Shown here: piece after piece, positions 38,401-59,400 of the stretch
Position numbering within the stretch: position 1 is the stretch's first letter
How the letters are laid out: every line of letters starts with the position of its first letter
From: Amphibalanus amphitrite
Lineage: Eukaryota > Arthropoda > Thecostraca > Balanomorpha > Balanidae
Direction of reading: 5' to 3'
Length of the DNA stretch: 64,000 nt
Assembly: GCF_019059575.1 (NCBI RefSeq)
Contig: NW_024881501.1
Location: 1,116,001 to 1,180,000, forward strand
Made by a program: the position numbers and the translations under genes
The notes under the pieces: model-generated
Databases searched by the model: none
The model's input: only the letters and a program-made list of their open reading frames with translations
What the model was told of the DNA's origin: nothing

Positions 38401-41400
38401 CCGCCAGAGGCGTAAGACAATGTATTGCATAAACAGCTCACCGTTGGAATGATAAATCTTAGACATTTTACATCGCACAAACAGAAATCAGTTGTGACAC
38501 TGGCCTTGGATGTCTTCAGTGGCCGTATTCACAATCACGGGTTAAGGGTAGGGTAGGAGTAACGGGTAACGGGTTATTTTTGTGGTCATATTCACAGTCG
38601 AAGTTTACTCCTGATGGTCGCCCGGCGCCACGCAGACGGCACCTGGCCTGTGTGGTGCCGTCTGCGTATGATGATGACGAGATGTCAATCGAATACCAAC
38701 TTTTTGGCATACCGATACCAAACCGATACCAACTTGGTATTTGGCGTTTCGAGGCTAACACATTTGGTATTTTGTTGGTGTTGTGAATCCTCGCTAATGT
38801 AAAAGAGACTGTGACTTTGGTAAAAAGTTGGCATTTCCCTGATATTCCCAAGTCGGTTCGGTTTCGGTATTTTCCCACGGTTCCTGTTGGTATTTGGTTT
38901 GGTATCGGTATCACGACTTTCTGTAATTGACAGCACTAGTCCATATATTTAAAAAAAAAATGCCTTCCCAGGTTTCTATCCATTGCGAACGTGAATACTG
39001 GACAGATTACTGAAGAATTGCTAGACTCTCTTCACCTTCGAGCAACTGAACAAGATCCAGCACCCCTGGTCACTCTGCAGTCTGGATTTTTCGTGCTTGG
39101 ACCTCACTGTTTAACCTCAAGCAACTCAAGTTGCGGAGCGAACTCAAGAGTCCAAGACCCTTGATGAACTGAACGCTGCCGTGAGTCGTCGAAGGTTCGT
39201 CTGCACGATGGCCGGCGATCATTTGGGGCTCCAGCGGGGGCTTACTTTATGTCATTCACTAATGAACACCCTGCACTAGTGCACGTGACCTGACCTCAGA
39301 GGTCACATGTTCATCTGACACTTTTAACATGATTGTGAATCGCTGGGTGTTGTTTTTGTTTGCAAGGATTTTAGCTTAATTATGGGCGAAACGGCGTCGA
39401 GGGTCCAGCACCCCCCCCCCCCCCCCCCCCACACACACACTCTAGACCCCTCTCGGTATTCAGAAAGTCGATAGGTCTGACGAGGAATAACGGATACAAC
39501 GACAACGAGACACGTGCACTCTTGAAATATGTTTGTTCAGTGTGGATTTGATTTTTGAGAACGTTTCCTTGCCTTGTCTATCAGCTGAAATTCGCCAATC
39601 AGTCTTATGCATTACCTAGCTGCATCGTTTCGAGTCCCATCAGTGGGAATGGCTTCTACACTCTACACTATCAGTGCTTTCTTGGAATGATATCACGTTC
39701 GATAGAAGCATAAAGCGAACACATAACGAACGGGGCGAGATTAACATATTGTTTAATTGTTAACCCTACCGAAGGTTTAACAATGCAGTTATTGAAATGA
39801 ACTGTTCAACAGTTGTTCAGCGCAATAAATGAGATTATACGAAACAGTAGGAAATTAATAGTTATGAAGGTTGAAATATGCCACCGTTAAGATAATGATA
39901 TAAACAGCGACGTTGGCGGCGGTATGCCGATCATGACAACATTATAATTGCTACGTCTTAAACAAATTGCCACGTAATGCAGCCTAAGTTGAAACTACAA
40001 TGAATGATGCGTGAGCTATATGGTCCGGCATAAGTTTTATCCTCTAAAAAAAATGTTCTCTCTAAGTTGCTACATAAGGGACAGCGATTCTTTTGCGTTC
40101 AGTTTATTCCCCACGAACAGGGATTTACATTACGAACGCAAATTTGCATGTTGGTAACTAGGTTGTGCAGTAAATACGGCTGGATTTTTTTCCTGCCCGT
40201 TTGAGCTGTAACGACAAGGCGCCGAGGCTAGCAGCCGGCTTCTGTTTGTCCAGGTCCTGCTGGACGATAGCCCGAAGTTCGTCGATCAGGATGAGGTCTG
40301 GATGGCAGCCGGCTAGCATGTCTTTCCTTCAGAAGTCTGGCACGTTCAATTCGCACCACCGCTAGGCCTTGGCAGAGCGATGAGCTGGCGCGCCGTCCTG
40401 ATTGAAAATGCATGTCAATGTAGCGGGGCTCAGCTGCAAGATAATTATTTGTTTGTGATTTTTGCGAGGCTGGTCAGTCACTGGCGGGCACATAGACTGC
40501 TACACTGATGGAGTGGGCAATGGGGTTAAGTTGGAATGCAAAAAAAAGGATTTCTGACAAGGTTACCCTGATAAATCTCTCTCCCCGATCAAAGGACTAA
40601 AATAACAAAAGGTCATTAACGCTGCAAACTCCATTAACTGCACAGAGGGGCGCCTCCCACTGGATATAACCATTCATGCTCCCATTCACACCATCATGCA
40701 TACCTTCCTTTGATACAAATTAAAACGCCAGGTCGCTAAACTGGCCCCTCCCTGTTTACCTAACCTCCCCCAGTGGTGTACAGTAGCCGTTCGTAAGCAT
40801 GCGTCAAAACCTTTGTCCTTTACCATTATACATGATCTCTGGAAATTTCCTTCTTAAGATTTACGTCCATTGCTTGATAAAATGTATTACTCATCCAGTC
40901 TCACACACTTTCACTCATCTGACTCAAACTTGTCCGTATTACCAAACTGCGACGTCTCGCTTCCCTCCCCCTTTTCCTTTCCCTGCAGTCGATCCCACAT
41001 CCTAAATTACCTCGGCTCTGGAGTACCCTCGGAACCTTTGAACTTCCACTCTGCCTATCGGATTTTATCGAAACACATTAATTAATTCTACACGTTCCAC
41101 CTAACGGGCCCTTTCTACTCATCGATGGTCTACACTTGGGATCACAAAGCACGTCTTACTACGTATTATCTCGCGTCTTACTGCATCTCCCGACGACTTA
41201 CGGCGTATAACTCGCGTCTTACAGCGTCCTTGCCCTATAACGACTAAGTGACGACTTACAGCGTATAATTCGCGTCTTACGGTATCGTCCCCCGATAACC
41301 GGCGTATAATCGCGACTTACGGTGTCTCTATCCGATCACCTGCGGTTATTCGCGTCTTACCGCGTCCTTGCCCTATGATGACGACGTGACGACTTACAGC

Positions 41401-56400: not shown

Positions 56401-59400
56401 AACTCTCAGCAGCACGGGTCACGGAGCCATCCTCCACCGCGCCGATCCCGCTACCCAGGCAATCTCGTCTCCTGCTCCTCCAGCGCGGCCGCCTTCCTCC
56501 TCCCGGTCGATCTGACTGCCCCTCTCCTCCGTCCCAACTGCTTCTCTCCTCCGGTCCTGACTGACTGCTCCTCTCCTCCCGTCCTGACTGACTGCTCCTC
56601 TCCTCCCGTCCTGACTGACTGCTCCTCTCCCATGCCCTCTCCGTTCTGCCTGCACTTGCCCTGGGGCTCTTCTCTGGTGCTCGTCCCTAGCTCCGCCCCT
56701 TTTTTTGCTGTCCGCCGGTTCTCTCGAAGGGTTAGGTTCCAATAGGTTCTGCACGTTCTGTCGACCTTGACGTCAGTCCGCTGGCTGGTCTCGCTGGCCG
56801 GTTCAGTTTGGTTGAATCTCATGTAGATTTATACAGGCTGGTCGACCTTACTCCGCCGTTTTCTGACGCGCAGCCTCCGGAGGGGCCGTTGTCATGACAA
56901 CGCCGGTGCCGGCTGCCCGGCCGCGCAGGTGCTGTACCGTTATGCGCGACCGTGTGACCGGGCCGTCCCCCCTCTTCGCGCCCTGTCGGCGGTCGGCTGT
57001 TATGACCGCTTTTGGCCGCTGACGCCGCGCAGCTGTCGTGGCGGGTGTCTGTTTGAAGCAGTTTGCTTTTGTGCCGAAACGTTTGAAATGTTAGAACCGA
57101 GAAATACGCTGCTTGTAAGAGTTGTTGTTCAGCAGACGGGCGGCGATCCCGGATCTCGAATAACGGTACTAAGCCCGTTATGCCGCTCCGACACCCTTTT
57201 GACGATGTGGCCGGGCTAAAAATGGATGTTTTCGGTATCTCGGCGCGGTGGGGGACCTGGTGGCCAGATGGGACGCTGATCAGCCGTAGCGTCGTAGCCC
57301 GTGTTTGCAGCCAGGAACAGAACGGAATTGAAGTTAGAAAAAGGTCTCCGTTGCAGCCAATGATGCTATTTGCAAAAAATGATAGAAAATGTAACCGCAT
57401 TAACGTTACATTTTCTATCCTCTTCTTTGAGTCGCGCCGCGGGGTTGAGTTGTAGTCTTATGTTGAGGTCCGTAAAATTGGCAAAATGTAACCGCCAGCG
57501 TTACATCAACATGTCATTGACCATGCGTTGGCCTAGCATTGGGCCAAAGGTAGGTAATGAGCCTCGGAGAGCTCTTCCAATAGCGTCTCACGGTCCCGTT
57601 TGGAGATGTGATAGCGCTTCAGCGCGAGCCGTTTGGCCAATTTTGTCGCGAACTATTGGCCCCTCTTCCCGGCCGCCTTTTTCAATGCGACTTCTGTAAC
57701 GTTTGAAATGGTAGGCGCACTCTGCAAACTGGAACGATCAGCGACACTGCCAGCAGCCGTATGCTTATCCCACCAACACCGGGCTGTGCAGATAGTTCGT
57801 CTATAATTAAGACTTGCAAACAAAAACAACAGGCAGATGTCCCAACCAATCAGCAATGACACGCTGTGTCATTTCGGCCTGGAGCATGCCGACTGTCTGG
57901 TTCAGCTCCCTTGATAGAAATGTCAGACCTTCATGTAGCGACGCAGCCTTTCAGGTGGACAATCTCTGTGAAAATGGCCGTAGCTCGGTGATCCGTGACC
58001 CGAGGTCCGTTCGTCACCTCATGTTCTGCCGCCAAGGACCGTGCAATGCAGGAGTGCAGCCTGAATCGTCATCCCTCAGGTGTAGACACGATTAGGAACC
58101 GGAAAGTGTTGTCATGGGTAGTGGACATAACTTTTGCCGACCCATGTAGTGTCGTCCTGTAGAGTCTTTCACTGTCAGCGAGACGCTACATGGAGTTAAA
58201 ATGGCGAGCGGCTCTCCCGCCGGAATGGTAAGCGCCCTTCTCTGTCAAACGCGGCGCTAGTTTCCGCCTAAGCTCCGCTGGCCCGCTGAACTGCTATGTC
58301 ATGCGGCACAGTCTACAAGTACAGGTGACCGGTCGCGAGATCGGAGCTCCGTAGCACCGAGCGAGTGTGGCGAAGGTGGGGGTATTCACCGCATCAAACC
58401 TACAGGTCGCCTGGACCCTTATCTTGAGACCAATAGTACCTACCGAACTCAAGCTTGATGAATATGGACTCTGGACAGGAAACCTGAACAACATGCCCCT
58501 ATCCTGAATCATGAAAATATCATGAGATTGTTCATATATTTCTGTTTTGACCCTTGTCCTGCGGACGGAGGGGGGGGGGGGCGTGTTTTAACCCGCGTCC
58601 TGGTGGGGGGGCTATTTTTTGCCCCCCCCTCCAGACTTTTCGATATATCTCCAGAACCGCTGCGCCGATCGTCACCAAACTCTCAGTACCCTTCCGGACA
58701 TCAATTTTACACATTGTGATCAAAAATTTTTCCAAAGGCTATGATAGGTTGGCCGGAAATGACGTCAGAGTGACGTCATGTTCTGCCGTTTTCGACCCAA
58801 AAAAGGGTTTCGCGGGAAGAGCTGTGAGGCCTATAGCTTTGCAAATACAGAAAAATAATAAAGCTGTGAGGCCTATAGCTTTGCAAATACAGAAAAATAA
58901 TAAAGACATAAAAGCTGTAGATTGGACAGGGCTACAAAACTGCTATCTCGAATGTTTGAAATTTTTGGATTTAGACCCCCAAAAATCAAAAAATAGATTT
59001 TTTGGATATAATAATCGAAAAATCCAAAAAGTTTTTTGAATTTCGCAAAAACCGGAATATATGTGATAGTCCTTACCGCCTTTCATCCACATTAGAGATG
59101 TCAATCGGATACCGACTTTTTGGTACCTATACCAATACCAAACCGATACCAACTCGGTATTTGGTATTTCAATCCTAATGTGTTTGGTATTTTGTTGGTA
59201 TCATGAACCCTCGGTAATGTTTAAGAGGCTAAGGAATCGGTAAAAAGTTGGTATTTTCCTCATGTTCCCAAGTTGGTTTGGTTTCGGTATTTCTCCACGG
59301 TTTTGGTTGGTAATTGGTTTCGTATCGGTATGCCGATTTTCCGTAATTGACATCACTAATCCACATACCAAATTTGTGATTGATACCTCTTTTTTTTGGC

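What the first reader, a model, noticed from the sequence alone, without database searches (positions are those of the whole stretch)
40419..57505. LTR retrotransposon with about 7.7-kb LTRs and a 1.67-kb coding-poor interior
TG...CA ends, an exact TCAA target duplication, a tRNA-Lys-type primer site 7 bases from one repeat and a purine tract against the other identify a real LTR element. The proportions are extreme: the LTRs make up about 90% of it and exceed any animal LTR length I know. It resembles plant LARD elements turned inside out. Near identity of the LTRs implies recent retrotransposition.
Basis: partly seen in the sequence, partly recalled or inferred. Interest (0 to 1): 0.95.

Follow-up and report, generated by a model that had tools for sequence, protein, structure and literature searches.

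The report
Non-coding retrotransposon with giant LTRs
This is a real, recently mobile, non-coding jumping gene whose two nearly identical end repeats are each about 7.7 thousand bases long and make up some 90% of it, and one stretch of those repeats matches a different, protein-coding retrotransposon in the same genome.

Summary
Confirmed. Window 40419-57505 is an LTR retrotransposon on the minus strand: LTRs of 7655 and 7767 bp, a 1665-bp interior without a conserved reading frame, a tRNA-Lys-type primer site, a purine tract and TCAA target duplications. The own genome (807.6 Mb) holds a family. In 5 of 5 insertions with both outer flanks read the 4-bp duplication matches, each different; one is a solo LTR, one an LTR-interior-LTR-interior-LTR array. 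Relatives' LTRs reach 9.3 kb.

A second family, "B", has a coding copy, C411: LTRs of 8.57 kb, gag, protease, RT-RNase H, integrase and a Baculo_F-type envelope (pol is broken), and the same primer site. Short-interior derivatives of B exist too. The window's LTR is chimeric: 1362 bp are 98.5% identical to the B LTR, and the related solo LTR C760 also holds B's LTR end, a primer-site remnant and a piece of gag.

Best reading: a non-autonomous element served by B-like proteins, whose LTR took in B sequence by template switching. The length and the chimera are shown; the mobiliser and the cause of the length are inferred. The kind is known; these proportions I did not find in print in the listings I saw.

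The parts
40415..40418 (.). target site duplication TCAA, left
   Evidence: identical to 57506-57509
40419..48073 (-). 3' LTR of the element (7655 bp)
   Evidence: aligns to 49739-57505 with 14 mismatches in 7655 aligned positions; TG...CA ends
40889..42250 (-). B-derived segment inside the 3' LTR (1362 bp)
   Evidence: corresponds to 50213-51574 of the other LTR, which matches the C411 LTR; not in the native LTRs of C185, C198, C8 and C752
48074..48096 (-). polypurine tract GACTCAAAGAAGAGGATAGAAAA next to the 3' LTR
   Evidence: same sequence beside the LTR in C185, C783, C198 and C8; differs in C752
48074..49738 (-). interior, 1665 bp, no conserved reading frame
   Evidence: its longest ORF is shifted out of frame in 7 of 7 other interiors, from 5 loci; no Pfam match in the 3 interior ORFs tested
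49714..49731 (-). primer binding site TGGCGCCCAACGTGGGGC (tRNA-Lys type; the tRNA name is recalled)
   Evidence: same 18 bases in C185, C783, C198, C8, C752 and C411
49739..57505 (-). 5' LTR of the element (7767 bp)
50213..51574 (-). B-derived segment inside the 5' LTR (1362 bp)
   Evidence: 98.5% to the C411 LTR; C185, C198, C8 and C752 hold 1.88-1.95 kb of unrelated sequence here
57405..57426 (-). second copy of purine tract plus LTR start, inside the 5' LTR about 95 bp from its U3 end
   Evidence: the relative C752 shows a single copy in the first 239 bp of its LTR
57506..57509 (.). target site duplication TCAA, right

Best explanation
A non-autonomous LTR retrotransposon. It supplies only cis signals: LTR ends, a tRNA-Lys-type primer site, a purine tract and whatever promoter and packaging signals lie in the LTR. 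It is copied by proteins made elsewhere, most likely by B-like Ty3/gypsy elements with an envelope gene, which have the same primer site and similar LTR ends. Its RNA would be about one LTR plus the interior (9.3 kb here, 10-11 kb in relatives), a normal genome length. Reverse transcription then doubles the LTR and gives a 17-20-kb insertion. In this lineage reverse transcriptase once left the element's RNA, copied part of a B-type RNA (LTR end, primer site, piece of gag) and returned, so B sequence became a fixed part of both LTRs. A later deletion of about 574 bp gave the window's version. Long LTRs then recombine, producing solo LTRs and triple-LTR arrays. Shown: structure, independent insertions, non-coding interior, chimera, solo LTR and array. 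Inferred: mobilisation by B, RNA length, template switching as the cause, and the order of events.
For: Structure and duplications. The LTR middle has matches at 25 loci, the window's included, 77-100% over the best stretch; 12 of the 25 have two or three copies, 9.4-12.5 kb apart except C783 at about 16.6 kb (40 of 47 candidates scored). LTR lengths: C185 8230/8280, C198 9070/9033, C8 9335-9339 (three), C752 8465 (middle one), C760 8262 (from coordinates). Interior frame shifted in 7 of 7, from 5 loci. B copy C411 codes gag, protease, RT-RNase H, integrase and Baculo_F envelope, has the same primer site 3 bases from its LTR and ACAC duplications. Chimera: 1362 bp at 98.5% to the B LTR; C760's extra 574 bp = 297 bp of B LTR end (87%), 89 bp of B interior start with a changed primer site (93%), 85 bp of gag (86%), then 64 bp of native LTR. 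The two chimeric insertions have different duplications (TCAA; ATAA, or TTAT on the other strand), so the chimera seems to have moved at least twice.
Against: Outside the captured segment the LTRs of the window element and C411 share no BLAST similarity with the low-complexity filter on; with it off they share only a GA microsatellite. The interiors share only 39 bp around the primer site (82%). B as helper is therefore not proved; an unseen coding element with this family's own LTRs remains possible. The C411 copy has a pol broken by a dispersed repeat between RNase H and integrase, and the other four widely spaced B loci were not read. The 5' chimera junction shows no microhomology by eye and the others at most a base or two, so recombination between DNA copies could also have made the chimera. 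No RNA or particle data exist. Capture explains about 1.4 kb of this LTR only: uncaptured relatives have longer LTRs, so capture does not explain the length as such.
Confidence: 0.8

Rival explanations
1. Non-autonomous element mobilised by an unseen coding member of its own LTR family, not by B. The B segment in the LTR would then come from a chance recombination.
For: The LTRs of the window element and C411 are unrelated outside the captured segment, apart from a GA microsatellite. Non-autonomous elements often share LTRs with their helper (recalled).
Against: 11 of 12 paired or tripled loci have spacings of 9.4-12.5 kb, against 17.0-18.5 kb for the widely spaced B loci; the twelfth, C783, has direct repeats inside its right LTR. 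But LTR lengths were measured at only 5 of these 12 loci (C4, C185, C198, C8, C752), 7 of 47 candidates were not scored, and the interior search did not complete. B has the same primer site and similar ends.
Confidence: 0.3
2. The LTRs are long because ordinary LTRs received old insertions of other transposable elements, which were then copied into both LTRs.
For: The LTR clearly tolerates foreign sequence (B segment, tandem repeats, GA microsatellite). C783 has direct repeats inside one LTR.
Against: The LTR has no similarity to anything else in the window. All 7 loci with measured LTRs (window, C185, C198, C8, C752, C760, C411) have LTRs of 7.7-9.3 kb. But only two LTR pieces were searched genome-wide, and 12 of the 13 single loci were not examined.
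Confidence: 0.2
3. A tandem duplication or an assembly artefact, not an LTR element.
For: Tandem LTR-interior arrays exist in the same family (C8, C752).
Against: Target duplications, primer site and purine tract in the right places; independent insertions with different duplications; a solo LTR. The two LTRs differ at 14 positions and 8 gaps, so neither is an assembly copy of the other.
Confidence: 0.01

Closest known systems
LARD elements of plants (described in passages of PMC6431247 as DNA trapped between two LTRs and moved in trans; the example Sukkula is recalled)
   Same: large, non-coding, moved in trans
   Different: LARDs have long interiors (recalled); here the interior is 1.7 kb and the LTRs carry about 90% of the length
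TRIM elements (maize Wukong PMC4528315 and ant PbTRIM PMC3532108, start of abstracts seen in a listing; Cassandra PMC7215508, passages)
   Same: tiny non-coding interior with primer site and purine tract (recalled for TRIMs); Cassandra also forms LTR-interior-LTR-interior-LTR arrays
   Different: TRIMs are small overall; this element is 17 kb and its relatives up to about 20 kb
Ogre elements of plants and Burro elements of planarians (passages of PMC6431247)
   Same: giant Ty3/gypsy-type elements; Ogre LTRs, called extraordinary there, are 1.9-6.5 kb
   Different: both are coding; Ogre LTRs are shorter than the 7.7-9.3 kb here; Burro's size lies in its interior of up to 25 kb
Errantivirus-like Ty3/gypsy elements of arthropods (gypsy; details recalled)
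   Same: B has gag, protease, RT-RNase H, integrase order, a Baculo_F-type envelope and a tRNA-Lys-type primer site
   Different: Drosophila gypsy LTRs are about 0.5 kb (recalled); B's are 8.57 kb
Wheat Wilma/Sabrina/WHAM system (passages of PMC9744471)
   Same: coding and non-coding families said to keep only a few shared motifs; template switching named there as a way to change helper
   Different: in plants; here a chimera holding the other family's LTR end and a primer-site remnant inside an LTR is seen

Membership tests
LTR retrotransposon | two direct repeats with TG...CA ends, primer site, purine tract, target duplication | tested here: met
LTR retrotransposon | independent insertions with different duplications | tested here: met
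   5 of 5 family insertions with both outer flanks read
Non-autonomous LTR element | no conserved coding interior | tested here: met
   longest frame shifted in 7 of 7 other interiors, from 5 loci; no Pfam match at cut-off in 10 of the 22 ORFs of 80 aa or more that one search listed for interior and right LTR
TRIM | short overall length with short LTRs | tested here: not met
   17 kb, LTRs 7.7 kb
LARD | long non-coding interior (definition recalled) | tested here: not met
   interior 1665 bp
Ty3/gypsy (Metaviridae): the B copy C411 only | protease, RT, RNase H, integrase in that order | tested here: met
   pol is interrupted in this copy
Ty3/gypsy (Metaviridae): the window element itself | own RT domain to place it | not testable with these tools
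   it has no coding region; only the shared primer site and similar LTR ends point there
Errantivirus-like: the B copy C411 only | envelope gene of the Baculo_F type | tested here: met
   PF12259, E 6.9e-32
Errantivirus-like: the B copy C411 only | placement in an RT tree | not tested
   no tree was built
Partnership with B | mobilisation by B proteins | not testable with these tools
   needs an experiment

The most novel reading that the evidence does not exclude
This genome holds a guild of LTR elements in which the LTR has become the main body. Non-coding members keep their RNA near 9-13 kb but double almost all of it on integration. Their LTRs change and may grow by reverse transcriptase copying pieces of the helper's RNA, even its primer site, into the LTR, which the next round then duplicates. 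A second purine tract plus LTR start lying about 95 bp inside the LTR, not seen in the relative C752, would be another way in which the LTR end has moved outward.
Probability: 0.35. Interest if true: 0.8.

Novelty: new variant of a known kind. Interest (0 to 1): 0.62.

Why it matters
[quoted passage not shown] Here two families in one genome have LTRs of 7.7-9.3 kb, with copies so alike that the steps can be read: native LTR (C185), LTR with captured B sequence (C760), and the same after a deletion (the window). That makes the origin of long LTRs open to test. It also suggests how a non-coding element can place 17-20 kb of DNA from an RNA of about 10 kb, and why long LTRs may breed solo LTRs and arrays.

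Tried and rejected
Assembly artefact or tandem duplication: rejected by duplications, solo LTR and independent copies. Hidden protein in the LTR or interior: 10 of the 22 ORFs listed were tested and gave no Pfam match at cut-off (one ORF gave three matches below cut-off), and the 218-aa interior frame is shifted in 7 of 7 other interiors, from 5 loci. Known RNA family: none in the window at gathering score. tRNA genes in the window: none. LTR made of common local repeats: no similarity elsewhere in the window. That the 5' chimera junction marks a transcription start: junction inspected by eye, no clear promoter motif, left open. Host name: the closest named relatives of B's integrase (62%) and envelope (51%) are from the barnacle Amphibalanus amphitrite, so a barnacle or related crustacean is likely but unproved. 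A search with the window's LINE gave no named host among the best 120 of 830 matches. Barnacle genome papers PMC8270832 and PMC8917513 (passages) had no occurrence of the term LTR. Those on very long LTRs showed 20 of 58 papers, 25 of 88, 5 of 5, 0 of 0 and 12 of 228; no title or start of abstract told of an animal LTR of this size, but most subscription papers are not held and most listed papers were not opened.
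Full report
What is there. The window is G000:C4:1116001-1180000 of an 807,550,619-base genome in 2644 contigs. Between TCAA duplications at 40415-40418 and 57506-57509 lie a 7655-bp LTR (40419-48073), a 1665-bp interior (48074-49738) and a 7767-bp LTR (49739-57505). The element reads on the minus strand: the primer site TGGCGCCCAACGTGGGGC is 7 bases from the right-hand LTR, and the purine tract GACTCAAAGAAGAGGATAGAAAA abuts the left-hand LTR. That the primer site fits a tRNA-Lys is recalled knowledge. The LTRs differ at 14 of 7655 aligned positions, K2P 0.0018, with 8 gaps of 112 columns, mostly in a GA microsatellite (73 bp) and a CT-rich tandem repeat (27 bp).

It is a family. 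With 1771 bp of the LTR middle (40 of 47 candidates scored), matches lie at 25 loci, the window's included. Twelve have two or three copies in the same orientation (C4, C185, C783, C198, C8, C2116, C599, C181, C752, C322, C1144, C718) and 13 have one. Spacings are 9.4-12.5 kb, except C783 at about 16.6 kb, whose right LTR holds 566-bp direct repeats. Seven loci of the two families were fetched in whole or large part: C760, C185, C783, C198, C8, C752 and C411 (additions). Of the six that belong to this family, C185, C198, C8 and C760 gave both outer flanks. C783 begins inside an LTR at a contig end, and the outer ends of C752 were not resolved (its last LTR is cut short). With the window that makes 5 insertions, and in 5 of 5 the 4-bp duplications match and all differ: TCAA, ACTG, GTAG, GTGA, and ATAA for the solo LTR C760 (TTAT as printed on the other strand). 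C8 is LTR-interior-LTR-interior-LTR inside one GTGA pair; C752 also shows three LTR copies. This fits recombination between LTRs after insertion; Cassandra elements of plants form such arrays too (PMC7215508, passages).

LTR lengths in relatives (from coordinates) are C185 8230 and 8280, C198 9070 and 9033, C8 9338, 9335 and 9339, the middle C752 LTR 8465, C760 8262. LTR pairs are very alike over the parts aligned: C185 0 mismatches in 8143 columns, C198 1 in 9022, C8 first against second 6 in 7367 and second against third 0 in 6172, C411 8 in 8572, besides 2-5 gaps in each. I give no dates: no mutation rate for the host is at hand, and long LTRs may be homogenised by gene conversion (PMC7251063, passages).

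The interior is non-coding. Its longest frame, 218 aa, is shifted by insertions or deletions in 7 of 7 other interiors, from C185, C198, C8 (two), C783 and C752 (two), and changes fall on all codon positions where there are several (the C185 interior was read without its last 66 bases or so). Ten of the 22 ORFs listed for interior and right LTR were tested and gave no Pfam match at cut-off.

A coding family with the same primer site. The first 1001 bp of the right LTR (from 49742) also matched a second set of loci (40 of 193 candidates scored, so counts are lower bounds). Where shown, those loci match the window LTR over at most 1362 bp, apart from GA-repeat hits (the output was cut). Without C4 and C760 there are 12 loci with two copies and 12 with one. 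Five pairs are 17.0-18.5 kb apart (C411, C897, C289, C1564, C2382) and seven 9.7-13.4 kb apart (C89, C84, C260, C1287, C295, C1053, C1420). C411, the only widely spaced one read, has LTRs of 8572 and 8582 bp, an interior of 9910 bp, ACAC duplications, the same primer site 3 bases from its LTR, and frames for gag, protease, RT-RNase H, integrase and a Baculo_F envelope. Its pol is broken by a dispersed repeat between RNase H and integrase, 682 bp of it 98% like window 1028-1706. Two closely spaced loci, C89 and C84, were read in 1.3 and 2.0 kb of their interiors. They keep a primer-site sequence with two extra bases, and parts of the gag and protease stretches; C84 also the 3' end of the envelope. 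So derivatives with short interiors exist in the B family too; their LTR lengths were not measured.

The window's LTR is a chimera. Window 50213-51574 is 98.5% identical to the C411 LTR. C185, C198, C8 and C752 hold 1.88-1.95 kb there; the other three resemble that of C185 (85-96% in the aligned pieces) and none of the four matches C411. The solo LTR C760 looks like the intermediate: after the shared 1362 bp it continues for 574 bp with the end of a B LTR (297 bp, 87%), the B interior start with a changed primer site (89 bp, 93%), a piece of gag (85 bp, 86%) and the last 64 bp of the native sequence. B interior 88-744 is missing in C760 and likewise in C89 and C84, so such a derivative was probably the donor. 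The window's LTR lacks these 574 bp. By eye the 5' junction has no microhomology and the others at most one or two bases. C4 and C760 have different duplications, so the chimera seems to have moved at least twice. Outside the captured segment the two LTRs share nothing with the low-complexity filter on, and only a GA microsatellite with it off.

How it most likely works. Proteins from B-like elements recognise this element's RNA by primer site, LTR ends and unknown packaging signals, reverse transcribe it and insert it. Shown is only that a coding family has the same primer site, similar LTR ends (TGTAAC...CTACA here, TGTAAT...CTACA there) and physically exchanged sequence; the helper role is inferred. 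LTR start to LTR start, which should equal RNA length, is 9320 (C4), 10052 (C185), 10841 (C198), 11096 and 11093 (C8), 10260 (C752, primer site to primer site) and 18482 (C411) (for C411 both starts move by 6 bases and the figure stays the same). Non-coding members thus seem to keep a normal RNA length although the inserted DNA is 17-20 kb.

Why the LTRs are so long is open. Capture is one route and is seen once. Another may be the duplicated purine tract plus LTR start about 95 bp inside the LTR, not seen in C752. Neither explains 8 kb. The LTR has no similarity elsewhere in the window, but only two of its pieces could be searched in the whole genome.

Against what is known. PMC6431247 (passages) calls Ogre's 1.9-6.5-kb LTRs extraordinary. 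PMC3485330 (abstract and passages) says that LTRs above 3 kb are infrequent and gives a range up to more than 5 kb. My searches on very long LTRs listed only part of their hits and showed no animal element like this, within a library that lacks most subscription papers. The element fails the size definitions of TRIM and LARD but works like both.

Noticed in passing
window 7563-11479, minus strand: A LINE-like element with two long frames, 931 aa (RT; unnamed relatives up to 74% identical) and 351 aa.
   Followed up: partly
window 29124-30326, 33154-34190, 58587-60109, 62159-63058: A dispersed repeat family in both orientations, 69-96% alike, with shorter pieces at 21116, 24920 and 38679.
   Followed up: no
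window 1028-1706: A repeat 98% identical over 682 bp to the sequence that breaks the pol gene of the C411 element.
   Followed up: partly
window 22986-24423, 60976-61301, 61849-63581: Minisatellite arrays with units of about 18-180 bp.
   Followed up: no
window 48092-48111, minus strand: A stem-loop that overlaps the start of the purine tract, GAGTCGTG-GGGG-CACGACTC here and GAGTCGCG-GGGG-CGCGACTC in C752: one compensated pair change.
   Followed up: partly
L037 and L039 (C198:347411-348685 and 369359-370633): A 1275-bp inverted repeat, 99.8% identical, flanks the C198 element and ends exactly at its left LTR.
   Followed up: no
L034 and L035 (C783:5570-6135 and 10967-11532): 566-bp direct repeats, 99.8% identical, inside the right LTR of C783, perhaps a nested LTR element.
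   Followed up: no
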